Shown here: one piece after another, positions 7,860 to 36,584 of the stretch
How the letters are laid out: every line of letters starts with the position of its first letter
Numbering within the stretch: the stretch's first letter is position 1
From: an uncultured Roseibacillus sp.
GTDB lineage: Bacteria > Verrucomicrobiota > Verrucomicrobiia > Verrucomicrobiales > Akkermansiaceae
Direction of reading: 5' to 3'
NCBI GenBank assembly: GCA_937949965.1
Contig: CALFBF010000074.1
Span: 1 to 36,584 of the forward strand
DNA: 36,584 nucleotides
Notes under the pieces: model-generated
The model's input: only the letters and a program-made list of their open reading frames with translations
Told to the model about the DNA's origin: nothing
Databases searched by the model: none
Position numbers and translations under genes: made by a program

Positions 7860-10283
7860 ATGAAAAGATTTTCCAAGACTCACCTCTGGCACCAACTTCT
7901 TGTTACCGTTGTCGCCATACAAAGTCCATTTGTGACTTTACTTGAGGGCGATGAGCATGAACTTCCAGAACTGCTAGAAGACACTTTGGCCTTCTATTGT
8001 TACGACTGCCATGGTGGCGGAATCACTGAGGGGGGCTTAGATCTAGAGGAAACCCCTTTCAAACTCTCTGATCCCCATAATCGTGAAAAATGGATTCACG
8101 TCTTTGATCGTATTCAATCCGGCGAAATGCCGCCTAAAGAAGAAGAGCAAATCGAAAATGAGGAAAGAGAAGCTTTCCTCGCAGCACTACAACCTCAACT
8201 GCTAAACGCTGAAAATAAAGACATCCGGAATAAAGGACGAGCACGGGGGCGACGATTAACCCGAGTGGAATATGAAAATTCTATCCACGATCTACTCGGT
8301 ATCCGGATTCCTCTCATCAGTCTCCTTCCGAGCGACGAAACAGACGGCAGTTTTCAAACTATCGCTCAAGGGCAACAGCTCAGTCACTTCCACCTCAGCA
8401 AATACCTAGAAGCTGCAGACAAAGCTCTCACCGAGGCCATTAAGCGCAGTAAAAACGACGGTAGTAGTTTCGAACAATACTTCAGTCCTCATAGCATTGC
8501 AGGGTCTGTTCCACGTTACTACGAAAACTATCGTGGCCCTCAAAAGAAGGGAAAACGCATCTACGCTTGGGCTCGCGCAATTGGATTCAACGGGAGCATG
8601 CAACCAACACGAGTCCCAGAATCAGGTTGGTACCGTATCCGGCTTGAAAACGTAGAGGGAATTAACGTTAACGACAACGGAGTTGTTTGGGGAACCCTGA
8701 AGACGGGAGCAGGCACCTCTGCACAAGCTCATCTGGAGCTTGCAACCCTCATTGAAGCTACTACCCAACCTAAAGACATTGTCTGTGAAACTTGGATTGA
8801 AGAAGAAGATCTCCTCGTGATCGAGCCTAACCGAGGGGGACAACCCAAAGTAAGACGTAAAGGCCCTCGTCCAGAAAACCCTAGACAACGTCGCGTCTAC
8901 TATCATGACCGAGATTTAATAGCGGAAGGATATGAAGCAATTGCCTTTGATAGTATTGAAATAAAACGCATCTACCCTGGGGGAACTCAAAGCCAAGTGC
9001 GAGAGAAACTCTTCCCCGGGGTGGTCTTCAAAGAAAATGAGCCTCAACTCATCGATCCCCAACAAGAGATTGAAAGCTTGATCACTCTCTTTGCAGAAAA
9101 GGCCTTCCGGCGACCGGTAACAGCCCAACAAATCCGCCCTTATCAGCAACTTGCGGTAAAGCGTTACCTTGAGTCAAAAGATCCCTTCCAAGCGCTCCAC
9201 GAGGGGTATCGGGCCATTCTTTGTTCTCCTCGTTTTCTCACCTTTGTCGAACCAGTAGGAAAACTTGATGACCATGCCATCGCGACTCGCCTCAGCTATC
9301 TCTTGTGGTCCAGCACACCCGATCAAACTCTGCGCAAACTTGCCGATAACAAAATACTTTCTCGTCCCAAGGTGCTTAAAAAAGAAATCTCACGCCTTTG
9401 GCAACATCCTCGCTCACAAAACTTTGTTGAAAACTTTACTGACCAATGGTTGCGATTAGCGGAGATTGATTTCACCACTCCTGATCCAAGGCGGTTTTAT
9501 AAATTCGACACTGTTTTACAGGAATCGATGTTACTGGAAACCCGTGCCTTCTTTCGCGAACTAATCCAAGAAGACCTTCCGATTAATCATCTTATTGATT
9601 CTGATTTTGCGATGCTGAACACGCGGCTCCAGAGACACTATCACCAAGAACATTTAAAGGTAAAACCGGGTAAAGGCATACAAAAAGTAAAAGTTGCCCC
9701 CGAAGACCGCAGTGGATTGGTCACTCAAGCCTCCATTCTGAAAGTCACCGCAGACGGGTCGGTCACCTCCCCTATCTTACGAGGAGTTTGGATTGGAGAA
9801 CGTATCCTCGGGTTGCACATCCCTCCTCCCCCCGCCAATGTTCCTGCTATCGAGCCCGACATACGAGGAGCCGTTAGTATTCGCGATCAGCTAGAGAAGC
9901 ACCGTGCCGATCCTTCCTGCGCCGCGTGCCATACCAAAATTGATCCTCAGGGTTTTGCGCTTGAAAGCTTCGATCCCATCGGGGGCTTACGCGAATATTA
10001 CGGACGAAAAAACGACTCTGTAAAAGTCGATCCCAGTGGACAGACCCTCGACGGGCTCTCTTTCCCCGATATCGAAGGTTGGAAAGCGATATACTCGCAA
10101 CGTCCTCGTCTGATTGCCAAAGCCTTTGTGAAGCAGCTACTCGCTTACGGCACCGGGGCCGAGATTGGCTTTAGCGACCGCCGAGCCATCGAGAGAATCC
10201 TAGACAAAGCGAAAGACCAGAACTACGGCGTCCGTTCTCTTATCGAGGCTGCGATTAGCAGCGACATATTCCTCACCAAATAA
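7860..10283 (+). CDS. DUF1592/DUF1587/DUF1588/DUF1585-type planctomycete-like cytochrome c (PSD) protein
   Basis: Two CxxCH heme motifs (CYDCH, CAACH); RRLTRVEYENSIHDLLG, RRPVT, RLSYLLWSSTPD, RGVWIGERILGLHIPPPPANVPAIEPD, LAYGTGAEIGFSDRRAIE blocks. Confidence 0.92.
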   Translation: MKRFSKTHLWHQLLVTVVAIQSPFVTLLEGDEHELPELLEDTLAFYCYDCHGGGITEGGLDLEETPFKLSDPHNREKWIHVFDRIQSGEMPPKEEEQIENEEREAFLAALQPQLLNAENKDIRNKGRARGRRLTRVEYENSIHDLLGIRIPLISLLPSDETDGSFQTIAQGQQLSHFHLSKYLEAADKALTEAIKRSKNDGSSFEQYFSPHSIAGSVPRYYENYRGPQKKGKRIYAWARAIGFNGSMQPTRVPESGWYRIRLENVEGINVNDNGVVWGTLKTGAGTSAQAHLELATLIEATTQPKDIVCETWIEEEDLLVIEPNRGGQPKVRRKGPRPENPRQRRVYYHDRDLIAEGYEAIAFDSIEIKRIYPGGTQSQVREKLFPGVVFKENEPQLIDPQQEIESLITLFAEKAFRRPVTAQQIRPYQQLAVKRYLESKDPFQALHEGYRAILCSPRFLTFVEPVGKLDDHAIATRLSYLLWSSTPDQTLRKLADNKILSRPKVLKKEISRLWQHPRSQNFVENFTDQWLRLAEIDFTTPDPRRFYKFDTVLQESMLLETRAFFRELIQEDLPINHLIDSDFAMLNTRLQRHYHQEHLKVKPGKGIQKVKVAPEDRSGLVTQASILKVTADGSVTSPILRGVWIGERILGLHIPPPPANVPAIEPDIRGAVSIRDQLEKHRADPSCAACHTKIDPQGFALESFDPIGGLREYYGRKNDSVKVDPSGQTLDGLSFPDIEGWKAIYSQRPRLIAKAFVKQLLAYGTGAEIGFSDRRAIERILDKAKDQNYGVRSLIEAAISSDIFLTK

Positions 10284-10296
10284 CTCTTATCACCTC

Positions 10297-11574
10297 ATGG
10301 CAAGATTCCACATTCATACGGGGGCGCAGCTCTCACGCCGCCACTTCTTACGCAATGCCGGCATTGCTATGGGTCTCCCTTTGTTGGATGCCATGACCCC
10401 AGCCTTTGCTGCCGCACCAACTCGTGCACCTAAACGTTTCGTAGGTATCAGTCTGTCGTTAGGGCTTCATAGCCCCAACCTCGTGCCTTACAACGCCGGT
10501 CGCTCATACACCCCATCGCGTTACCTCCAGTCAGTACAGGATTTACGAGACGACTTCACTGTTGTTTCAGGCACGTCTCATCCCGGCGTAGGTGGCGGCC
10601 ATCGTGCGGAAGCTTCTATCTTCTCCGCCTGCCCAAACAAGAACGATGGTGCCCGCAACACGATTTCTCTCGATCAACTCATGGCAAAGCATCTTGGTCA
10701 CGAAACTCGCTTCCCTTCTCTCGTCCTCAATACCGGTCATGAGAAGAGTCCCTCCTACACCGAGAATGGCTCTATGATTCCGGCGACAAACGATCCGGTT
10801 GCGCTCTTCGAGCAACTCTTCATCGACGACGAACCAGCAGTGCGTCACCGACGTAGAGATCTGCTGCGCGAAGGCAAAAGCGTCATGGACATTATCGGCG
10901 CTGAGGCCAAGGCCTTGCAGCGCGAAGTGGGAGCTGGGGATCGAGAAAAACTCGACTCTTGGTTCACGAGTGTGCGGGAACTCGAACAACGGCTTGAAAT
11001 GAATCAAGCATGGGTCGAGAAACCCAAGCCCAAGGTCAAAAGTCGTCCTTCCAGAGCTGACCAAGACAACGCCGCGGACATCAAGCGCGCAATGCTCGAC
11101 TGTATCGCGATGGCTATCCAAACGGACTCCACCCGCTTTGTCACCCTCCACTGCACTACGAATGCGACCCGCACCATTGACGGTGTCGATGAGAACTATC
11201 ATGGGTTGAGCCACCACGGGCTAGACGAGGACAAGCTCGAACAGCTCGCTCGCGTCGAACAAGCGATGATTAACTCATGGGGCAACTTCCTCCGCCAACT
11301 CAAGGAAAGTCAATCTAACGGACGCTCCCTACTCGACGACACCATGGTCCTACTGACCTCGAATCTCGGCAATGCCTCCTCGCATAATAACCGCAACATG
11401 CCGGTCCTCTTTGCTGGTGGAGACTTCATCCACGGTCAACATCTAGCATTTGACCAAGAAGATAACTACCCCCTACCCAATCTCTACCTCAGCGCGCTGA
11501 ATTCCATTGGCATTATGGAAGACAACTTCGCAACGAGTACTGGTCGCATGAAGGGGCTAGAAATGAAAGCCTAA
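10297..11574 (+). CDS. DUF1552 domain-containing protein with Tat-type leader
   Basis: Leader LSRRHFLRNAGIAMGLPLLDAMTPAFA; follows the DUF1592 gene by 13 bp; SIFSACPNKND / HHGLDEDKLEQLARVEQAMI / NLGNASSHNNRNMPVLFAGG blocks. Confidence 0.9.
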   Translation: MARFHIHTGAQLSRRHFLRNAGIAMGLPLLDAMTPAFAAAPTRAPKRFVGISLSLGLHSPNLVPYNAGRSYTPSRYLQSVQDLRDDFTVVSGTSHPGVGGGHRAEASIFSACPNKNDGARNTISLDQLMAKHLGHETRFPSLVLNTGHEKSPSYTENGSMIPATNDPVALFEQLFIDDEPAVRHRRRDLLREGKSVMDIIGAEAKALQREVGAGDREKLDSWFTSVRELEQRLEMNQAWVEKPKPKVKSRPSRADQDNAADIKRAMLDCIAMAIQTDSTRFVTLHCTTNATRTIDGVDENYHGLSHHGLDEDKLEQLARVEQAMINSWGNFLRQLKESQSNGRSLLDDTMVLLTSNLGNASSHNNRNMPVLFAGGDFIHGQHLAFDQEDNYPLPNLYLSALNSIGIMEDNFATSTGRMKGLEMKA

Positions 11575-20712: not shown

Positions 20713-20881
20713 CACGAGTATCTGATCACTGAATACGGAGGCGAGATCGAAGATGTCGTTAATCGGACCTTGCACCCGCAAAATACACGTTAACCTTTTG
20801 CTGAGAATCAGCATTTGCATCTGTCTTACTACTCTGCCTCCCACTCTGACTCTTCATTACGTCTCCTTCTTTGCTATTCCG

Positions 20882-23800
20882 ATGCGTCTCACCACTCTTC
20901 TCCTTACTAGCTCACTCGCTCACGCGGAACTGAGTTACAACTACGACGTTCGCCCCATCCTTTCGGATAAGTGCTTTCTCTGCCACGGCCCTGATGAGCA
21001 AAAGAACGGAGCGGGACTCCGGCTCGACAATGCGGCGGCGGCCTTTGCGGCACTGACGGAGTCAGACGGCTTTGCGATCGTTCCTGGCAAGATAGACGAG
21101 TCGGTTGCTTGGCATCGTATCGTATCCACGGAAGCGGATGAAATCATGCCTCCGCCGGACTCCAACTTAGTGATGACTCCGGAAGAAAAGGAGATTATCC
21201 GCAAATGGATCGAGCAAGGGGCTCCCTACGAAAAACACTGGGCCTTCGAAAATCTTCCTTCAAGAATAGCAGTGCCAGCAGTGACCGACACCAACTGGCC
21301 CCAAGGCAAGATTGATCACTTCACGCTCAAAAAGATGGAGGAACAAGGCCTCGCTCCCTCACCTGCAGCTGATCCCTTGCGTTGGCTGCGGCGAGCCTCC
21401 TTTGACTTGACCGGCCTCCCTCCCACTGAGGAAGAAATTAAGACCTTCTCTGACGCGGCATCAGCTGACCTAACAGCAGCTAAAGAAGCAGCTACTGATA
21501 GACTGCTCAGCTCCTCATCCTACGGTCAACACATGGCCATCGGCTGGCTCGATGCCGCCCGCTATGCCGACTCCTACGGTTATCAATCTGATAAGCTCAA
21601 CACGCAATGGCCTTACCGAGACTGGGTAGTAAAGACCTTTAACGAGAACCTCCCTTACGACGACTTTCTCACTTACAATATTGCCGGAGATCTCCTTCCC
21701 GAAGCCACTCGCGAGCAGAAGTTGGCCACGGCCTTCAATCGACTTCATCGGCTCAACAACGAAGGAGGTGCTATCTTTGAAGAATGGCGCACCGAGAACA
21801 TCGCGGATCGAGTGCACACCTACGGCACCGCAGTCTTGGGCCTCACCTTCGAGTGCACACGGTGCCATGACCACAAGTATGATCCCCTCACGATGACGGA
21901 TTACTACTCCCTCTTCGCCTTCTTCAATTCCATTGATGAGAACGGGATGTATGACCGCACCGAGCGTGTTCCCTCCCCCACTCTTTTACTTCCCGACAAG
22001 GGACAAGAGAAAACACTCGCTCGTGCGCAACAAAAACTCACTACCGCTCGGAAAAATTACGAACAGCAAATTCAAGCGAGCAGCGCCGACTTCGAAGCTT
22101 GGTTAACTACTGCCGAACCTTCTCAAGTAGGACTATCAATGCCGACCATCGGACTCGATTTCTCACGAGGAGAAATCACTGATGAGCGAGCAAGCTTTGC
22201 CGAGGGAGATCACTCTCCATCCACCCCTCTCGACTTCAAGCCTTTCCACCCTTCTCGCCCGCAGGTGCAAGCATTGGCTCTTGATGGTGATCGTTACCTC
22301 AGCTTTGCAGATGTGCCTTCATTCGATCGCTGGACCCCATTTACAATCGCAATCACTCTTCACCAAACTCAGACCTCCAGCCATCGCAGCGTCCTCGCCC
22401 ATCACAGTCGTGGCACCGACGCAGGCTTCAACGGTTGGGATCTCACTTTGGAAAACGGGCATGTAGAATCTCGGCTCTACCGCGTATGGCCTGGTAATGG
22501 AATGGGTGTACGTAGCCTAGAGCCAATTCCCACTGACGAAGTGCAACACCTCACCGCGACTTGGGACGCCTCCGACCAAGCAACTGGACTGCGACTTTAC
22601 CTCAATGGAGTGGAACTCGCGACCGAAGTTCTCCGCGATAAAAAAGTCAAAGCAGCAGGAGTGGTCACTCAACATGGTGGCAAACTTGGCCTCGGTTCTC
22701 GCTGGCGCGATGCCGGACTAGCGGGAGCCTTGTTGCAAGACTTCGCCTACTACGATCAGGCTCTCACTAGCATTGAGATTGCGCGCTTGAGCGAACACAG
22801 CGAAGTCCCTCACAATTTCGTAGTAAATAATGCCGACTGGCACGCGCACTACACCCAGCGGATCAATGAGAGTAACCAGCAGGCTCAACAACAAGTGATC
22901 AAAGCGGTGCAGGAACTGGTCGCAGCCGAGGAACCAATCAACGAAATTCCCGTTATGGAAGAGCTCGCCGAACCTCTGCCAGCCTACATTCTCGACCGCG
23001 GCGAATACAATGCACCGAAGACACCCGATAAAATCGTCGGTCGTAACACCCCCGAGACGCTCATGCCCTTCCCCGAGGATGCCCCCCGTGATCGAGCGGG
23101 CCTTGCTCAATGGACCGTTCACCCCGATAACCCCCTCACCGCGCGAGTCTTCGTCAATCGCATCTGGGCCAGCTTCTTCGGAATCGGCCTCATCGACACT
23201 CCTGAGAACTTCGGTCTGCAAGGAGCCCTCCCCTCCCATCCTGAGCTGTTAGATTGGTTATCACGCGATTTCGTGAACCAAGACTGGGACATCAAAGCGC
23301 TCTGCCGCAAAATTGTCCTCTCCGCCACTTATGGTCAGGACTCTCGCAATCGACCTGAGCTCGTGGAGCGAGATCCCGAGAACCGCCTCCTCGCGCGTGG
23401 GCCTGCACACCGTCTCGCGGCCGAACAAATTCGAGACCTCGCTCTCGCCTCCTCCGGGCTTCTCAATCCCGCCGCAGGTGGCCCCCCAGTCTCACCCTAT
23501 CAGCCCGGCAAAGATTTGTGGCGTGAATCTAACGGAATGTCGCCGCCTTACGAACAGTCCGTCGGGGAAGACCTCTACCGCCGCTCACTCTACTCGGTCT
23601 GGAAGCGCACCGCGCCACTCCCGAACATGCTCACCTTCGATGCCGGCACCCGTGAAGTCTGCGCTGTCGCTCGCTCACGCACCAATACTCCGCTGCAGGC
23701 CCTCGTGCTGCTCAACGATATTCAGTTTGTAGAAGCGGCCCGTCACCTCGCCCAAGAAATTTACCATAAAGACCCTTCGGAAACCATTCGTCGGGCTTTT

Positions 23801-24021
23801 CTAAGGCTTACCGGACGACCTAACACCGCCGATGAGGAGAAGGTTCTCTTGGGGCTCTACGAAAGCGAACTGCAGCGCTTCGAAGAAGAACCCGAAGCGG
23901 CCAAAAAGCTCCTTTCTCTCGGCACAAGTGAGGTTGACTCCAAACTCCCATCCGCACCACTCGCGGCCAGCACCATCATTTGCCAGACCATCCTCAACCT
24001 CGACGCAACCATTTGGAAACG

Positions 24022-24025
<4 letters not shown>
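20882..24025 (+). CDS. PSD1 / DUF1549-DUF1553 heme protein with internal LamG-like domain
   Basis: CxxCH motifs (CFLCH in the N-terminal PSCyt1 block, CTRCH); [38 protein letters not shown]-type [37 protein letters not shown]; start taken at ATG 20882. Confidence 0.92.
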
Positions 24026-25506
<1,481 letters not shown>

Positions 25507-28502: not shown

Positions 28503-29444
28503 CTAGGGGCCCTTGATGTCAAAGAGAGAACTTACTGATTTTCCTTCGTGAATACACATTATCGCTTCTCCAAAGAGAGGCGATAAGTCAACGACCTCGA
28601 CCTTTCCTTGATTGGAGACCGGTGTCGAGTTGGTCGTGAGCAGCTTCTCAATGGCAGATTCTTCAATCCTTCGACGGCCTAAATCTCCCAGAACGGCGTG
28701 AGAAACTCCCGCGAAAATACGGTTTACCCCATTCGTTGCTAAGATTTTGGCCGCTGCGCAGAGCGTTCCTGCGGTCTCCGTCATATCATCGACCAAGAGG
28801 ACATCTTGTCCTGCGACCGAACCGATTAAATTCATGGCCTCCACCTCGGTAGCGCTGACACGGTGTTTGGCAACAATGGCTAGCTCAGCGCCCAAAAGAT
28901 CGGAATAGGCACGAGCAAGCTTCACCCCTCCCACATCGGGGGATACCACAGTCAGAGAAGAAGGGTCGAGCCCTTTACGCAGCTCACGCACGGCACCGAT
29001 GAGAGCTCGCTTAGCATAGAGATGATCAACCGGGATATCAAAGAACCCCTGAATCTGCGCGGCGTGCAGATCCATCGTAACCACTCGTTGCACACCAGCT
29101 GCTGTTAAGAGGTTCGCCACGAGCTTCGCGGTGATGGGTACTCGGGGTTGGTCCTTTCGATCCTGCCTCGCATAACCAAAAAAAGGAATGACGGCGGTAA
29201 TATTACCTGCACTCGCCCGGCGCGCAGCATCTACCGTGATGAGTAGCTCCATCAGATTATGGTTCGTCGGCGGGCAAGTGGGCTGAATGATGAACAAGTC
29301 TTCCCCTCGAATGTTCTCGTTAATTTTGACGAAAGTCTCTCCATCAGGGAAAGAGTCTACCTTAACGTCAACTAACTCTTGCCCGAGAAAACGGGCAATT
29401 CCCTTCGAGAGCTCATCGTGAGCAGTTCCTGAGATTAACTTCAT
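28503..29444 (-). CDS. prs: Ribose-phosphate pyrophosphokinase
   Basis: MKLISGTAHDELSKGIARFLG; FPDGETFVKINENIRGEDLFIIQPTCPP; FFGYARQDRKDQPR; VVTMDLHAAQIQGFFDIPVDHLYA; VDDMTETAGTLC. Confidence 0.96.
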   Translation of the reverse strand: MKLISGTAHDELSKGIARFLGQELVDVKVDSFPDGETFVKINENIRGEDLFIIQPTCPPTNHNLMELLITVDAARRASAGNITAVIPFFGYARQDRKDQPRVPITAKLVANLLTAAGVQRVVTMDLHAAQIQGFFDIPVDHLYAKRALIGAVRELRKGLDPSSLTVVSPDVGGVKLARAYSDLLGAELAIVAKHRVSATEVEAMNLIGSVAGQDVLLVDDMTETAGTLCAAAKILATNGVNRIFAGVSHAVLGDLGRRRIEESAIEKLLTTNSTPVSNQGKVEVVDLSPLFGEAIMCIHEGKSVSSLFDIKGP

Positions 29445-29678: not shown

Positions 29679-31091
29679 CTACTTAGCACCCTTGCTGAAG
29701 AGGACTGCTGGGATAGTTTTGAGGAGAATTTTAAAGTCCGACCAGAGAGACCAGTTGTCGATGTAGTCGAGGTCCATTTTCACCCAATCATCGAATTTGG
29801 TAATCTGGTTGCGACCACCTGCTTGCCATGTGCAAGTGATTCCGGGTCGCACACTGAGACGGCGGCGGTGCTCCATTCGTTCGAACTTATCAACCTCATA
29901 AATAGGCAAAGGCCGTGGACCGACAAGGCTCATATCTCCTTTGAGAACATTCAAGAGTTGAGGAAGTTCATCGATACTCGTTTTCCGTAACCAAGTTCCA
30001 AATCCAAAGACTCTCGGATCCTTATCCAGCTTAAAAACAGGACCACTCATCTCATTTCCAACGTCTTTCTTAACATCTGCTAAACGAGCCTCGGCATCAG
30101 GAACCATGGTTCGGAACTTATAAATCATGAAGGGCTTACCGTAGCGTCCTGCCCTCTTCTGCTTGAAAAGAATACCTCCTGTAGGGCTTTTCAATTTGAT
30201 TCCGATTGCGGCTAACAACCAGAGAGGAGAACTCAACATAATAATAATAAGAGCTCCAACCTTATCGAACAATGTCTTTGCAAAAAGCGCCCAAGATAGC
30301 TCTGGCGTTGAGCGTAACACCAGCATCGGTTTGCCTGCCATTAAATCAAAATCAGGGCGTGCAATCTGAGTGCGAATGAATCCAGCAGAAATCCAAGCCT
30401 CCACCCCTTGGAGTTCACAAACCTCGATTGCCTTAGCCAACTGCCCAAACTCGGTATGACGGGCTAAGAAAAGCACTCGTCCTACAGATGCTGCTTTGAT
30501 TTTTGCCTCAAAATCTTCGAGAGAAATTTCTCTCAAATCAAGTCGCTCAACAATCTTCCAACCAGCTTGTATTTCCTCAGATGTTTCACTTAAAAACTCC
30601 TCAATTTCTTGATCTCCGCCAGCAAGGATAACAGCCTCTTTCGCATCTTCTGCCCGAACAGCATGCATCACTACACTGCGGGTAGCAGCTTCACGCAGCA
30701 ATAAGAAGACCGAAGCCAAAGGCACTCCAATACCTAGAATTAAGCGGCTAGAAACTGAGATTTTCCAAAAGATAACGAGTAGTCCAACCACCAACCCAAC
30801 GATTACCAAAGCCTGTAGTAATTGAATAATCGAGGTCTTAAGACGCTTTCGAAGCGGGTTTCGGTAAAAGCCAAAAATCTCTAGCACAATGGGTAGAAAA
30901 GGAACAATAATGAACAAGACCCAGACTAAGTCTGAAAGCCCCCCCTGTAGATCGTTCATCGAGCCCATTCCAAATAACCCTCGAATCGGATCACGTAAAA
31001 GAGCCGCAACCCAAAATGACAAGCCAATCAGAACTGCGTCAACAAGCTGCAGAATCTGTATTGAAAGACTTTCTCTCTTACCGTTCTCCAT
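29679..31091 (-). CDS. Polyprenyl glycosylphosphotransferase (bacterial sugar transferase family)
   Basis: N-terminal TM helices; SPTGGILFKQKRAGRYGKPFMIYKFRTMV; LRKTSIDELPQLLNVLKGDMSLVGPRPLP; RLSVRPGITCTWQAGGRN. Confidence 0.94.
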   Translation of the reverse strand: MENGKRESLSIQILQLVDAVLIGLSFWVAALLRDPIRGLFGMGSMNDLQGGLSDLVWVLFIIVPFLPIVLEIFGFYRNPLRKRLKTSIIQLLQALVIVGLVVGLLVIFWKISVSSRLILGIGVPLASVFLLLREAATRSVVMHAVRAEDAKEAVILAGGDQEIEEFLSETSEEIQAGWKIVERLDLREISLEDFEAKIKAASVGRVLFLARHTEFGQLAKAIEVCELQGVEAWISAGFIRTQIARPDFDLMAGKPMLVLRSTPELSWALFAKTLFDKVGALIIIMLSSPLWLLAAIGIKLKSPTGGILFKQKRAGRYGKPFMIYKFRTMVPDAEARLADVKKDVGNEMSGPVFKLDKDPRVFGFGTWLRKTSIDELPQLLNVLKGDMSLVGPRPLPIYEVDKFERMEHRRRLSVRPGITCTWQAGGRNQITKFDDWVKMDLDYIDNWSLWSDFKILLKTIPAVLFSKGAK

Positions 31092-31114: not shown

Positions 31115-33085
31115 TTATTTGAGAGCGGCTCTCCACTCGATAACCGGAACTGGCTGCGACTGAATACGCGCTCCTTCTAAAAAAGCAATCCGTTGTCGAA
31201 TTGATTTCAAAGTAGGAGCACCCCAACCTGTTCTCGAGAAATTCCTGCGATGACTCTCGGCAAAAGCGGCTTCGGCTTCTTCGAACAAAAACAAAGCCTC
31301 CTCAGGACGGCGGCTTAGACGAGCCTCTTCACCCCGAAGATATAAGTGCCACCCGACTCCAAAAATAACTCCATACTTATTCTCTCTCCGAGCTGCCGCT
31401 TCTAAAGCTTTAAGATGATGTTCCTCCGCTTCCTCAAAGAGACCCAACTCATCCAGTGTGCGGGCGTAACTCGTTAAACTCTCCGCATCTAGGGGATGCC
31501 TCCCAACCACTCGACCCCAATCTTCTTTCGCCAAACTGAAATCAACTTCTCCGGCAATTGCACGTCTCAGTGAATCTCTCGCTACCAGTCTCAAAACATC
31601 GAAAGAAGGAGCCCCTTCACTATATTCCCTCCGCGCCTCTCGAATCCCTCTTCCAGTATCTTTCGCATTTTCCAACTTTATAAAATCATTGATGGCCAAA
31701 ATCTCATTCTTGCCGGCATAAAGGGAATATGCTCCAACAAACAAGACAGCCAAACAAGTAACCTCCTTTGACCATCGCAGGCTAAATTTTATTCGCGTTA
31801 ATCCATCAGGTTTTTGGTTTTTCTGGCAATTACTAGGCCGAGAGCAAGTAATCCCTCCGGCAGCTACCATCGCAAAAGCCATCAGATTAGGAGCGATATG
31901 CAAATTAAAGTCGAAAGCAGCACGGATACATTCTGCCACCAACACGCCGAGTGCAGCTGAACGCAACCAAAGTCCATTCAAAGAACGTTCACTATACACC
32001 TCTGAATCCGTCTCTCTTTTCTTCAAGAGAAGAAAACCCACTACCATCACAAGAACAGCAACAGCTAAAAAACCGATCAATCCATAATCTGCCAAAAGCT
32101 GCAAATAATCCGAATGCGCCATTCTCGCGTTCCCGTACCACCCACCCAGACCATAGAAGAACTTGGGAAACAAATAAGAAAAACTATGAGAACCCATTCC
32201 CATAACAGGGCTTTCGGACCAAATACTAAAGGCTATTCCTGCCATTCCTAGACGCCCACTCTTTGCACCTACAACGGAACCCTCACCTCCACGGTTTTCA
32301 AGAATCTGCTCCCAAAGAAAAACACCTCCGAACACCACCGCAAGCACCACACCAAACAATAGTGAAAATTTCCAGAATTGTCTTTTTGCGGTTTTCTCTT
32401 TGTTACCCATTTCAAATAAAACAACGATTACACTAGCTACTATAGCAACCGCAAACCCCCCTCTCGAATTCGTTAGAAAACAAACAAACATTCCAAGACC
32501 AAACGTCAAAAGCAGAAGAAGCTTAGTCACTGGCGTCCTTTGCGCTATGCCTGCCGCCAAAACAACAGGACAGGCAATCTCCAGAAAACCGGCCAAATAA
32601 TTGCGGTGATAATAGAATCCACTCACCCCTAAGACATCAAGTCGCTGCGAGCTCAAAAAAGCAAATCGCTCATCGACTTGCCATTGATAAACAGCAACCA
32701 CAGAATTCCCAATCACCAATAAAATAAAAAAGCTAAGTAGTAGTCCGCGTCCCGCTCGGCACTGGAGCGCCGATGATGCCGCGAGAAAAACCAACGAACC
32801 CGACGCAACTAAAAACAAATCTATTCTAGCCAAATCCCACACAGGAGAAGCGGCTCCTCGAAAGAGAAAATACCCAACCACTAATGAGAGAATCCCTATC
32901 ACTGGAATGTCATTTCGCCTCGGGCCGAACGCTACACAAATAATAGAGCCAAGCGCCAATGGGGACATCACCAAAGCAAGCCTCGGGATCTGAAAACCAG
33001 TCGCCACCACCCCTGCATAGAGAAAGCCAACCAGCACAATCAGCCACCCCAACATCGAAATCTTCTTATTCTGTACCTCAACCAT
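31115..33085 (-). CDS. O-antigen ligase/polymerase-like membrane protein with soluble TPR-like C-terminus
   Basis: Multi-pass membrane protein with Wzy_C-like block NSRGGFAVAI...MGMGSHSFSYLFPKFFYGLGG...AHSDYLQLLADYGLIGF; C-terminal helical repeat ARTLDELGLFEEAEEHHLKALEAAA. Confidence 0.87.
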   Translation of the reverse strand: MVEVQNKKISMLGWLIVLVGFLYAGVVATGFQIPRLALVMSPLALGSIICVAFGPRRNDIPVIGILSLVVGYFLFRGAASPVWDLARIDLFLVASGSLVFLAASSALQCRAGRGLLLSFFILLVIGNSVVAVYQWQVDERFAFLSSQRLDVLGVSGFYYHRNYLAGFLEIACPVVLAAGIAQRTPVTKLLLLLTFGLGMFVCFLTNSRGGFAVAIVASVIVVLFEMGNKEKTAKRQFWKFSLLFGVVLAVVFGGVFLWEQILENRGGEGSVVGAKSGRLGMAGIAFSIWSESPVMGMGSHSFSYLFPKFFYGLGGWYGNARMAHSDYLQLLADYGLIGFLAVAVLVMVVGFLLLKKRETDSEVYSERSLNGLWLRSAALGVLVAECIRAAFDFNLHIAPNLMAFAMVAAGGITCSRPSNCQKNQKPDGLTRIKFSLRWSKEVTCLAVLFVGAYSLYAGKNEILAINDFIKLENAKDTGRGIREARREYSEGAPSFDVLRLVARDSLRRAIAGEVDFSLAKEDWGRVVGRHPLDAESLTSYARTLDELGLFEEAEEHHLKALEAAARRENKYGVIFGVGWHLYLRGEEARLSRRPEEALFLFEEAEAAFAESHRRNFSRTGWGAPTLKSIRQRIAFLEGARIQSQPVPVIEWRAALK

Positions 33086-34664
33086 TTCCCTGCAGTAAGA
33101 GCTCTCCTCCGTTAATATTCCCTTTATAAGTTCCGCTAAGGATCAGCCCAGCCTTCGTAAGGGATTCTTCAAACTTGACATCCTTCCTAACAAGACTTTC
33201 GTGCACAAAGACTCTTCGCCCTTGCTGTATGTGCTGCCCCACTAAACGGTAAAATTCGTCCGTTCTTCGGTCACCCACTTTCACCACCGAGACTTCCACC
33301 TCAACCGCGTATCTCACATACCTGGCATGGACCGAGTTCAGCGTTCCCATGAGATAGATATCTCCTGCCCGGGCTTCCCCCCGGACAAGCCGAGAGGTTT
33401 GATCGTGATAATCATTCTCTTTGCTCGCCAAAAAAAACATCCCTCCAACGTAATTTGTCACTAAGAGAGCCCCCCCTAAGAACCAAATTTGACGACAAGG
33501 AAAGCGCGGCAACCATAAAGCGAGCGCAAGCCACACCAAGGGAAGCCCTAACAACCACATCTCGGGATTCCCTGGCTCAAAAACAATGATCATAACAAGG
33601 TAACACCCTAGACCTGCCAATACCGCCCACTTTTCAGAACTGTTAGGCAGTTCACCCTTCCGCACACTACGCCAAAGCATTTTCCCCGCAGTTCCAATCA
33701 GAAAAACCACGGTAAACACTCCTAGCAACCAAAATAATATCCAAAGAGAAGAAGTGCCATCAACCATCATTTTTTCTTCCGCTAAGAAACGATAAGGAAA
33801 GAGCTCTTTAGAGAAAAACTCGTAAACTGGCTCCGAGGCCATCAGCACATTGCCTCCCAGTAGACTAACCCCCAATCCAATTGCTCCTTTGGGTAAAGAG
33901 CTAAGCCGAAAAGGTCGTTTCTTACTCAGTTGTTTGCGATCCACTTTGAGTTCTTCCTCAAAAAAATCTGAAAGTTCTCCTCGCTTGGCAAGCGACACCT
34001 TTCTTGTAGGCAAAGCATCTGCGCTCACCTCGCAAACCGAGTAGAGAAGAAGGCCCACCCCGGCACTCACTAAACCCGCAAGCCACTGCCTCTGTATGAA
34101 TAAATCAACCAATCCAATCACCAAAAGCGGTGGTCCTAGCGCTCGGTGAATATTCAAAGCCACCACCACGACAACAGCGTACATAACGCCTCTCACCCAA
34201 GGGCGCCCCCCCTTCCAAAGGAAAAAAAGAGCCAGTACAGAAAGACATCCTAACCACCCCATAGCATAGACTTCTACCTCCCGCGCATAGCGCCAAAACC
34301 CATAGCTGAAAGCGAGACACACCGTCCAAGCTAAGCTCTGCCAATTCCCTGCACCCGTTAACTTCTTAATTAAAAAGTAAAATACGAAAAGGGAACCAAC
34401 AGCCATCACGCCACTGAAAACAGCCAAAACTTCAAACGAACGCTCTTGCTTAGAAAGGACAAAAATCCCTTTTGCCAAGGGGTGATACAGTCGGTGGTTA
34501 GGATGAAATAACTGCCCGTAAGGAAGTTTTTCCACCTCCAAAGCATAGGTAAATGCGTCCTCCGCTTCAGTCCGATTCTCAATAGGGGGAAGACAGAAAA
34601 CACCCAATAGAACGAGAACAACTAAGCTAAAAGAAAAACTTCGCTTCTTGAACGAGGCCATCAT
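33078..34664 (-). CDS. Multi-pass membrane protein, GT-C-fold glycosyltransferase-like
   Basis: Many hydrophobic helices; first extracytoplasmic loop with acidic motif NRTEAEDAFTYALEVEKLPYGQLFHPNHRLYHPL and a soluble C-terminal segment, as in GT-C-type transferases; assignment by topology, not clear family motifs. Confidence 0.6.
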   Translation of the reverse strand: MMASFKKRSFSFSLVVLVLLGVFCLPPIENRTEAEDAFTYALEVEKLPYGQLFHPNHRLYHPLAKGIFVLSKQERSFEVLAVFSGVMAVGSLFVFYFLIKKLTGAGNWQSLAWTVCLAFSYGFWRYAREVEVYAMGWLGCLSVLALFFLWKGGRPWVRGVMYAVVVVVALNIHRALGPPLLVIGLVDLFIQRQWLAGLVSAGVGLLLYSVCEVSADALPTRKVSLAKRGELSDFFEEELKVDRKQLSKKRPFRLSSLPKGAIGLGVSLLGGNVLMASEPVYEFFSKELFPYRFLAEEKMMVDGTSSLWILFWLLGVFTVVFLIGTAGKMLWRSVRKGELPNSSEKWAVLAGLGCYLVMIIVFEPGNPEMWLLGLPLVWLALALWLPRFPCRQIWFLGGALLVTNYVGGMFFLASKENDYHDQTSRLVRGEARAGDIYLMGTLNSVHARYVRYAVEVEVSVVKVGDRRTDEFYRLVGQHIQQGRRVFVHESLVRKDVKFEESLTKAGLILSGTYKGNINGGELLLQGNG

Positions 34665-35398
34665 AAACGAGTCCTATAGAAGATAAAATTGGGAACTGCT
34701 TTGATAATACTCATAATAAAAAACCACCACCCTGGAGCATAATAAGACTTACTTCCCCCTTTTTCTAGAATCCGCAAAATCTTTTGCGCAATCACTTCTG
34801 GCTCGGAAAACAAAGCGTTCTTTTTGATCTGCTCAGTCATTGGAGTATTGACAAAACCAGGCTTCACCAAAGCCACTTTCACCTTCCGATTTTTGAGATA
34901 ACAGCGATGCCTGAGAGCATTCGCGAAAATCTCTAAAGCCCCTTTTTGGGCACCATAGAAACCATTCGATTGGCGTCCGCGATCACCCGCTACTGATCCC
35001 ACCAAAACTAACTGCCCCCCATCGTCATTTTCTCCCAATTTTTCTCCAATGAGCCGTCCTAAAAAAGCAGGTACTGTAAAGTTGACCAACACATTCTGAT
35101 TCCAATCAACCAGCGATGCAAACTCATCACTTAATACCCCCGGTAGAATGACAGCCCGGCACAGATCGTTCCTCTTCTCAATCCACTCCCCTAATTGCTG
35201 ACACTTCTCAACAGCTCCAAAATCAACAACCCGAGTCTCAACCTTAGCCGCGCCTCTCACTTCAGCCTCCGCCGCAACCGTTGCAAGCCTCTCTTTGTTT
35301 CGACCGATCAGATACAGCCGCCATCCTTTCGAAGCGCACTCTTTCGCTAAGGCCGCACCTATCGCCGAGGTTGCACCAATAATTAAAACTGCATTCAT
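34661..35398 (-). CDS. SDR-family oxidoreductase, DprE2-like
   Basis: MNAVLIIGATSAIGAALAKECASKGWRLYLIGRN Rossmann motif; NGFYGAQKGALEIFANALRHR (YxxxK); VKPGFVNTPMT; adjacent to DprE1-like gene. Confidence 0.85.
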   Translation of the reverse strand: MNAVLIIGATSAIGAALAKECASKGWRLYLIGRNKERLATVAAEAEVRGAAKVETRVVDFGAVEKCQQLGEWIEKRNDLCRAVILPGVLSDEFASLVDWNQNVLVNFTVPAFLGRLIGEKLGENDDGGQLVLVGSVAGDRGRQSNGFYGAQKGALEIFANALRHRCYLKNRKVKVALVKPGFVNTPMTEQIKKNALFSEPEVIAQKILRILEKGGSKSYYAPGWWFFIMSIIKAVPNFIFYRTRL

Positions 35399-36584
35399 CG
35401 TAGCATTCTCTCCCAAAACTCTGAAGTAATCTTCGGATCCCTCATTTGCTCTAAGCGCTCCCAAGCGGGGTAGCTTTGTCTGAAAAAATCTGCATCCATG
35501 CGGGCATCCTTAGCAGGATACAAGCGGCCACCAGCCTCCCTCACGATATCATCCATTCGCTCAAAAAGCGCTAGGGTTTCAGAACCTTCCATCGGAAAAT
35601 CCATCGCCAGAGTCCATCCCGCCATTGGAAAAGAAAGCCAACCTGGAGATTGTTGAACGCCAAACTTTTTCAACACAGACAAACAAGCTCCCTGACCAGA
35701 ATCCGTAACAATCTTCTGTAAGCACGCCAACACCTCCCTTTTACCTTTTGGAACAACACATTGATACTGCAAAAATCCGCGCCTCCCGTAGAGACGGTTC
35801 CAATCTCCAATCCCATCCAAAGGGAAAAAATATGAATGAAAAGGCTGCCTGAAAACACCTTCTCGACGAGTAACGGAGTAGACACGGTTAAAGGCCCGAA
35901 TCGTCGATCTATTCAATACGAAATGGGGAGCTTCAACAGGCACTTTCACCGTTTGGCCAGAGCTCCGCGGCATTTCCCCCTCCACAAACCGTCCCCCCAT
36001 AGCCACTCCTTGGCCAGTCTTACTACTAGCCATATCGAGCCAAGCTACCGTCATCGGAAAGTCGCGATCCATCTCTTCGAGAATCTGCATTCCCTCATCT
36101 AGACTCCCAAATCGCCTCGACTCTTGCTCCACCAATCCTTGTCCAACCAGAGAATGCATCTTGATAGTCACTTCTACAATCACTCCAGTTAGACCAAGGC
36201 CCCCAATAGTCGCTTCGAATAATTCTCGATTCTGCTCACGACTGCACAACAACCAGCCATGCTGCGAATGGAACAGCTTAAAACTATCTACCCAATACCC
36301 AAAAGTCCCAGCTTCATGATGATTCTTACCATGAATATCGTTAGCTACAGCCCCTGCGACCGTCACATATTTGGTGCCTGGCACAACCGGCAAAAAATAC
36401 TTCCGAGGCACACTCCACGCTAAAATGTCGCTCAGTGAACACCCGCCCTCGACAGTCAAAAGAGCAGTATCGGCATCAAAACTCAACAAGCCTTGACAGC
36501 GGCACAACGAAACCATCGCACCCCGTTCCGCAGAAAGAAGCGCGCTGTCGCCGTAACTCCTCCCCTTCCCAACTGCCAAATAAC
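35395..36584 (-). CDS. FAD-linked oxidoreductase, DprE1-like (5' end beyond window)
   Basis: GKGRSYGDSALL FAD-binding motif; VPGTKYVTVAGAVANDIHGKNHHEAGTFGYWVDSF; frame stays open to the window edge so the N-terminus is cut off. Confidence 0.85.
   Translation of the reverse strand, partial: YLAVGKGRSYGDSALLSAERGAMVSLCRCQGLLSFDADTALLTVEGGCSLSDILAWSVPRKYFLPVVPGTKYVTVAGAVANDIHGKNHHEAGTFGYWVDSFKLFHSQHGWLLCSREQNRELFEATIGGLGLTGVIVEVTIKMHSLVGQGLVEQESRRFGSLDEGMQILEEMDRDFPMTVAWLDMASSKTGQGVAMGGRFVEGEMPRSSGQTVKVPVEAPHFVLNRSTIRAFNRVYSVTRREGVFRQPFHSYFFPLDGIGDWNRLYGRRGFLQYQCVVPKGKREVLACLQKIVTDSGQGACLSVLKKFGVQQSPGWLSFPMAGWTLAMDFPMEGSETLALFERMDDIVREAGGRLYPAKDARMDADFFRQSYPAWERLEQMRDPKITSEFWERMLR

What the first reader, a model, noticed from the sequence alone, without database searches (positions are those of the whole stretch)
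33078..36584. DprE1/DprE2-like pair coupled to a GT-C-like membrane protein: candidate polyprenyl-phosphate-pentose glycosylation locus
Three consecutive minus-strand genes overlap by 4 bp (35395-35398 and 34661-34664), implying tight co-expression. In mycobacteria DprE1 and DprE2 epimerise decaprenylphosphoryl-ribose to decaprenylphosphoryl-arabinose, the donor for GT-C arabinosyltransferases. A DprE1/DprE2 pair feeding a GT-C protein outside Actinobacteria would suggest an undescribed arabinofuranosyl decoration of an envelope glycan or protein.
Basis: partly seen in the sequence, partly recalled or inferred. Interest (0 to 1): 0.75.

Follow-up and report, generated by a model that had tools for sequence, protein, structure and literature searches.

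The report
Sugar-lipid epimerase and transferase gene cassette
A Verrucomicrobia bacterium (Roseibacillus-type) carries, inside its exosortase/exopolysaccharide gene cluster, the two enzymes that in tuberculosis bacteria turn a lipid-carried ribose into arabinose, next to a membrane protein that probably hands that sugar to a surface glycan or protein; similar pathways are known in other bacteria, so this is an interesting new variant, not a new principle.

Summary
DprE1-like (35395-36582, cut off by the contig end), DprE2-like (34661-35398) and a membrane protein (33078-34664) overlap by ATGA. DprE1 matches solved mycobacterial DprE1 (E~1e-103) and keeps nine of twelve active-site residues checked; the benzothiazinone-target Cys387 is Ala. 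The membrane protein models as a GT-C glycosyltransferase (pLDDT 84; best solved match ArnT).

The window is a whole contig, so nothing lies to its right. Three other Roseibacillus genomes fill that in: exosortase, EpsI, polyprenyl-phosphate phosphoribosyltransferase (PPPRS), SLOT, Wzy/TPR ligase, sugar transferase, prs. The slot holds DprE1-DprE2-GT-C (R. persicicus, window), nothing (R. ishigakijimensis, cassette elsewhere), or an unrelated membrane protein in a genome without DprE. In 388 phylum genomes, 26 of 27 with DprE1 also have PPPRS; the exception is this assembly, which also lacks an exosortase although it has PEP-CTERM proteins, so a gap is likely.

Best reading: a swappable epimerase plus GT-C cassette that turns polyprenyl-P-ribofuranose into an arabinofuranose donor for a surface glycan. 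Such three-component systems are published outside Actinobacteria (PMC11127046). New here: the exosortase setting, the phylum, the GT-C family. Donor sugar, acceptor, phosphatase and flippase are not shown.

The parts
35395..36582 (-). DprE1-like FAD oxidase (polyprenyl-phosphoryl-ribose 2'-oxidase), 395 aa, N-terminal ~37 aa cut off by contig end
   Evidence: NF053785 E 2.5e-87; 34.6% identity to the mycobacterial DprE1; R58, Y60, H132, W230, R325, Q334, Q336, K367, K418 kept; Y314F, N385T, C387A
34661..35398 (-). DprE2-like SDR reductase, 245 aa, ATG start inside the DprE1 stop
   Evidence: adh_short; NF053786 E 1.6e-34; invariant SVAGxRGRxSNxxYGxxK and conserved C-terminus; always adjacent to DprE1
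33078..34664 (-). GT-C-fold membrane glycosyltransferase, 528 aa, family not in Pfam or NCBIfam
   Evidence: invariant N-x-x-E-A-E-D-A after TM1, AlphaFold pLDDT 84.4/pTM 0.87, Foldseek best ArnT 5F15 E 1.2e-4, TM 0.52
31115..33085 (-). O-antigen-ligase/polymerase-like protein with C-terminal TPR, overlaps GT-C by 8 bp
   Evidence: Wzy_C E 3.6e-18, TPR_12
29679..31091 (-). Exopolysaccharide polyprenyl glycosylphosphotransferase (initiating sugar transferase)
   Evidence: Bac_transf E 2.5e-64; TIGR03025 353 bits, over its cut-off
28503..29444 (-). prs, PRPP synthetase (would supply PRPP); part of the syntenic prs-rplY-pth-rpsF-ssb block beside the locus in all four Roseibacillus genomes
   Evidence: sequence reading and synteny; housekeeping neighbour, not a dedicated part

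Best explanation
It is an epimerase plus GT-C cassette in the slot of an exosortase-type exopolysaccharide locus. Proposed mechanism: a UbiA-family PPPRS (lost in the assembly gap to the right) puts ribose-5-phosphate from PRPP on a polyprenyl phosphate; an unidentified phosphatase removes the 5'-phosphate; DprE1 oxidises C2 and DprE2 reduces it with inverted stereochemistry, giving polyprenyl-phosphoryl-D-arabinofuranose; a flippase turns it outward; the GT-C protein transfers the arabinofuranose outside the membrane to the glycan (or protein) that the ligase and sugar transferase of the same operon build. Shown by sequence: gene order, overlaps, family of each enzyme, conserved active site of DprE1, GT-C fold, linkage and co-occurrence with PPPRS. 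Inferred: substrate, product, direction of transfer and acceptor.
For: DprE1 active-site conservation and match to solved DprE1. DprE1-DprE2 adjacent in all 25 non-window loci examined, with PPPRS, often fused to a HAD phosphatase, directly upstream in 8 of them. PPPRS profile: 8J8J E 7e-55, next family 1.5e-9; NCBIfam best hit for all three Roseibacillus copies is decaprenyl-phosphate phosphoribosyltransferase, below cut-off. Phylum survey: 26/27 DprE1+ genomes have PPPRS versus 127/361 others (p 1.4e-10); by genus 13/13 versus 75/185 (p 1.6e-5). Gap explanation: G000 lacks both PPPRS and exosortase but has 24 PEP-CTERM hits, at least 14 over the cut-off. Cassette unity: the trio is conserved in two genomic settings, inside the locus (R. 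persicicus, window) and detached (R. ishigakijimensis). GT-C fold. Precedent: PMC11127046.
Against: The PPPRS is not in this assembly; its presence is inferred. Roseibacillus PPPRS copies have NDxxN where Rv3806c has Asn73...Asp77, and mutation of Asp77 cost 82% of activity in M. tuberculosis (PMC10994848). No dedicated phosphatase or flippase lies in the locus; only a single unlinked GtrA gene per genome. Outside Roseibacillus the GT-C family mostly lacks DprE neighbours. Co-occurrence tests are not corrected for relatedness. DprE2's best NCBIfam model is a generic SDR.
Confidence: 0.66

Rival explanations
1. The DprE1/DprE2 pair makes the arabinose donor, but the adjacent GT-C uses another polyprenyl-phosphate sugar (hexose, or plain ribofuranose), and the arabinosyltransferase is encoded elsewhere.
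For: GT-C relatives sit in exosortase/EPS loci without DprE in Kiritimatiellota, Lentisphaerota and Verrucomicrobiota; closest solved fold is ArnT, not Emb/Aft; GT-C fold does not fix the donor.
Against: In Roseibacillus the GT-C follows DprE1-DprE2 in every genome that has them, also when the trio has moved; the genome without DprE also lacks this GT-C. All 11 genera with the GT-C have PPPRS, so even the relatives could use a pentofuranose.
Confidence: 0.2
2. The pair acts on a different polyprenyl-linked or free sugar, i.e. it is an oxidase/reductase pair outside the DprE pathway.
For: Identity to mycobacterial DprE1 is only 31-39%; Y314F and N385T changes; best DprE2 model is a generic SDR; Asp77 to Asn in the partner PPPRS.
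Against: Catalytic and flavin-site residues kept across the phylum; constant pairing and PPPRS linkage.
Confidence: 0.1
3. The cassette is decaying or silent in this organism (PPPRS really lost, gene remnant at contig end).
For: PPPRS and exosortase not found in the 90.6% complete assembly.
Against: All frames are open and overlapping; many PEP-CTERM proteins remain; the contig stops inside DprE1, so absence is expected from the break.
Confidence: 0.04

Closest known systems
Three-component pentofuranosylation systems (Citrobacter youngae O1/O2; PPPRS, flippase, GT136), PMC11127046
   Same: PPPRS making polyprenyl-P-ribose, optional epimerase changing the pentose, GT-C acting outside; gain or loss of the epimerase differs between close relatives; the paper assigns DprE1/E2 homologs to Araf-containing glycans.
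   Different: No MATE flippase gene seen in the Roseibacillus locus; PPPRS not fused to a phosphatase; the GT-C has no Pfam or NCBIfam model and was not compared with GT136 directly; sits in an exosortase/EPS locus with a Wzy-like ligase.
Mycobacterial decaprenyl-phosphoryl-arabinose pathway (Rv3806c, Rv3807c, DprE1/DprE2, Emb/Aft)
   Same: DprE1/DprE2 and DPPR synthase homologs, DprE1 active site.
   Different: Cys387 is Ala, the GT-C is not Emb/Aft by sequence, no arabinogalactan-type envelope expected, no phosphatase gene in the locus.
Pseudomonas paraeruginosa pilin arabinosylation (TfpW plus unlinked Araf genes), PMC12369383
   Same: Gram-negative Araf transfer by a GT-C protein using ubiA-type genes.
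   Different: There the acceptor is a pilin and the transferase gene lies with the pilin; here the genes lie with EPS and exosortase genes.
Exosortase/PEP-CTERM (EpsH/EpsI) exopolysaccharide loci, PMC1569441
   Same: EpsH, EpsI, EPS sugar transferase and Wzy-like ligase in one locus, many PEP-CTERM proteins in the genome.
   Different: PPPRS and the DprE1-DprE2-GT-C cassette inside it; no paper joining the two appeared among the listed results.

Membership tests
DprE1 | Sequence family match to decaprenylphosphoryl-ribose oxidase over full length | tested here: met
   NF053785 E 2.5e-87 over 42-430/449, PDB DprE1 E ~1e-100 to 1e-105; below the 500-bit equivalog cut-off
DprE1 | Active-site residues R58, Y60, H132, W230, R325, Q334, Q336, K367, K418 | tested here: met
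   all kept in the window protein; Y314 and N385 are replaced
DprE1 | Cys387, benzothiazinone target (not required for catalysis, own knowledge) | tested here: not met
   Ala in the window; Cys in L128 and L129 only
DprE2 | SDR with DprE2 model match, S-Y-K catalytic set, pairing with DprE1 | tested here: met
   model match below cut-off (120 of 250 bits) and second to a generic SDR model
DprE1/DprE2 epimerase system | Converts polyprenyl-P-ribose to polyprenyl-P-arabinose | not testable with these tools
   needs biochemistry
Three-component pentofuranosylation | PPPRS (UbiA) gene | tested here: inconclusive
   absent in this fragmented assembly, present directly upstream in R. persicicus and in the matching place in two further Roseibacillus genomes
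Three-component pentofuranosylation | Flippase | tested here: inconclusive
   one unlinked GtrA-family gene in each of four genomes; none in the locus
Three-component pentofuranosylation | GT-C fold transferase | tested here: met
GT136 / Emb / Aft / TfpW | Sequence relationship of the GT-C | tested here: inconclusive
   no Pfam or NCBIfam hit, no PDB sequence hit to any arabinosyltransferase; fold nearest ArnT, AftB rank 29; GT136 and TfpW sequences not compared
Exosortase locus | Exosortase and EpsI beside the EPS genes | tested here: inconclusive
   met in three relatives, beyond the contig end in the window

The most novel reading that the evidence does not exclude
The pentofuranose-decorated glycan made by this locus is the partner or anchor of exosortase-processed PEP-CTERM proteins, so that swapping the DprE1-DprE2-GT-C cassette changes the coat onto which these proteins are sorted. 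PPPRS beside exosortase-EpsI in all three Roseibacillus genomes where that region is readable is compatible with this but does not show it.
Probability: 0.1. Interest if true: 0.8.

Novelty: new variant of a known kind. Interest (0 to 1): 0.5.

Why it matters
D-arabinofuranose is rare outside mycobacteria, and the glycan partner of exosortase systems is unknown (own knowledge). Four close genomes with the same backbone locus and a different content in one slot (epimerase plus GT-C, empty with the cassette elsewhere, another membrane protein without epimerase) form a natural experiment: the model predicts arabinose in R. persicicus and R. ishigakijimensis, and ribose rather than arabinose in the DprE-free species. 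It also gives a GT-C family without a Pfam model and a DprE1 clade whose members mostly lack the benzothiazinone-reactive cysteine.

Tried and rejected
Searching this genome for the missing PPPRS with the Pfam UbiA model found only three genes, read as CtaB, MenA and EboC (the EboC one has NCBIfam EboC as best, sub-threshold hit); with a PPPRS protein and a profile nothing. Searching for the far side of the gap with an upstream membrane protein of R. ishigakijimensis found nothing, so the gap could not be bridged. PDB sequence search with the GT-C found only meaningless hits. The idea that the G003 slot protein is a diverged copy of the GT-C was rejected (HMM score -1.5). Plasmid records hold no relative of the GT-C. 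The idea that prs is a dedicated part of the pathway was rejected: it belongs to a conserved housekeeping block in all four genomes. A literature search for decaprenylphosphoryl plus arabinofuranose plus Verrucomicrobia gave no papers.

Full report
OBSERVATION. The operon continues leftwards: the GT-C stop overlaps the ligase start by 8 bp, followed by an EPS initiating sugar transferase and then the prs-rplY-pth-rpsF-ssb block (gene names by sequence reading). The window is the whole contig C74 of a 2.73-Mb, 166-contig, 90.6% complete genome, so DprE1 is truncated and nothing can be read to its right.

FAMILIES. DprE1: NCBIfam decaprenylphosphoryl-ribose oxidase E 2.5e-87; solved mycobacterial DprE1 structures E about 1e-105 to 1e-100 by profile, next family 1e-12. 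Mapped on the mycobacterial sequence printed, R58, Y60, H132, W230, R325, Q334, Q336, K367 and K418 are kept; Y314 is Phe, N385 is Thr and Cys387, the benzothiazinone target, is Ala. Among the 13 DprE1 proteins of the phylum compared, only two (L128, L129) have Cys387. DprE2: SDR with the expected catalytic set and a conserved hydrophobic C-terminus; DprE2 model E 1.6e-34, second to a generic SDR model. GT-C: no Pfam or NCBIfam family; 16 relatives from the genome collection share N-x-x-E-A-E-D-A right after the first membrane helix. AlphaFold model pLDDT 84, pTM 0.87; Foldseek best hits are ArnT (E 1.2e-4, TM 0.52), ALG12, OST subunits, ALG9 and Pmt4, with AftB at rank 29. This shows a GT-C fold, whose known members use polyprenyl-phosphate(-type) donors; it does not show the sugar.

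WHAT LIES TO THE RIGHT. In R. persicicus (L019/L023; named through) the order is GTs, exosortase (PF09721 E 1.7e-31), EpsI-like DUF3485, UbiA protein, DprE1, DprE2, GT-C, ligase, sugar transferase, prs. The UbiA protein belongs to the phosphoribosyltransferase branch: NCBIfam decaprenyl-phosphate phosphoribosyltransferase is best, below cut-off, and the profile of seven such proteins hits 8J8J at 7e-55 against 1.5e-9 for the next family. The own genome contains no such gene and no exosortase, yet has 24 PEP-CTERM hits, at least 14 over Pfam's cut-off; both missing genes are neighbours of the break in relatives. I therefore conclude an assembly gap, by inference.

GENUS COMPARISON. The Roseibacillus genomes share the backbone exosortase-EpsI-PPPRS-slot-ligase-sugar transferase-prs as far as readable. 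Slot contents: DprE1-DprE2-GT-C in the window and R. persicicus; empty in R. ishigakijimensis, where the same trio stands after a glmS-like gene on another contig; an unrelated 601-aa membrane protein in G003, which has no DprE1 and no such GT-C. The trio moves and is lost as a unit. Pairwise identity window to R. persicicus: sugar transferase 83%, DprE1 65%, DprE2 59%, GT-C 45%, ligase 44%: the proteins expected to face the glycan diverge fastest.

PHYLUM SURVEY. Of 388 genomes, DprE1 (E <= 1e-30) occurs in 27 (13 of 198 genera), PPPRS (E <= 1e-15) in 153, the GT-C in 28 (11 genera). 26 of 27 DprE1 genomes have PPPRS against 127 of 361 others (Fisher p 1.4e-10); by genus 13/13 against 75/185 (p 1.6e-5), and for the GT-C 11/11 against 77/187 (p 9e-5). 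These tests ignore relatedness within the phylum. DprE2 is adjacent to DprE1 in every one of the 25 non-window loci drawn by the DprE1 searches, and PPPRS, several times fused to a HAD phosphatase, adjoins in 8. Two genomes (L021, L121) have HAD-PPPRS, DprE1, GtrA, DprE2 and a GT-C in one run, a fuller version of the same pathway. Outside Roseibacillus the GT-C family sits mainly in exosortase/EPS loci without DprE; one locus (L035) has a DprE1 about 3 kb away on the other strand, without a DprE2 seen. No PPPRS was found within those GT-C stretches.

MECHANISM. Shown: gene order, families, active-site conservation, fold, linkage. Inferred: PRPP to polyprenyl-P-ribose-5-phosphate (PPPRS), dephosphorylation (enzyme unknown), C2 epimerisation (DprE1/DprE2), flipping (perhaps the single unlinked GtrA), transfer by the GT-C to the glycan assembled by the locus. 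Weak points: PPPRS of all three Roseibacillus genomes carries NDxxN instead of NDxxD, a change at the position whose mutation cost 82% activity in M. tuberculosis (PMC10994848); no phosphatase or flippase in the locus; acceptor unknown.

KNOWN WORK. Kelly et al. 2024 (PMC11127046) established PPPRS-flippase-GT-C systems as a widespread route, with optional epimerases, and assigned DprE1/E2 homologs to Araf glycans. Pilin arabinosylation in P. paraeruginosa is documented (PMC12369383). Exosortase-EPS linkage goes back to Haft et al. 2006 (PMC1569441). I found no paper joining the two within the library searched, which lacks most subscription journals. Hence: new variant of a known kind.

Noticed in passing
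L019:10295-11188, L144:9516-10412, L145:9815-10702: Roseibacillus PPPRS proteins have NDVxN in place of the NDxxD motif kept in the other phylum members checked and in Rv3806c (Asp77 to Asn).
   Followed up: partly
L021:6053-11569 and L121:4273-11586: Two family members carry HAD-PPPRS, DprE1, GtrA-like, DprE2 and a different GT-C as one compact run, a better experimental model of the full pathway.
   Followed up: partly
L128:3877-11772 and L129:7678-15541: HAD-PPPRS, DprE1, DprE2 followed by ~1450-aa membrane proteins (L128: DUF2298 plus PMT domains); these two DprE1 proteins keep Cys387.
   Followed up: no
L145:10672-12477: Unrelated 601-aa multi-pass membrane protein without Pfam or NCBIfam match occupies the slot in the Roseibacillus genome lacking DprE1/DprE2.
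   Followed up: partly
L020:7319-12810: In R. ishigakijimensis the DprE1-DprE2-GT-C cassette stands alone directly behind a glmS-like gene, away from the exosortase locus.
   Followed up: partly
L111-L117, L119, L122, L127: DprE1-DprE2 pairs without any PPPRS or related GT-C nearby, among housekeeping-looking genes; the genomes have PPPRS elsewhere.
   Followed up: partly
window 7860-11574 and 20753-25506: Two gene pairs that look like DUF1553/cytochrome and DUF1501 proteins typical of Planctomycetes and Verrucomicrobia (from reading, not searched).
   Followed up: no
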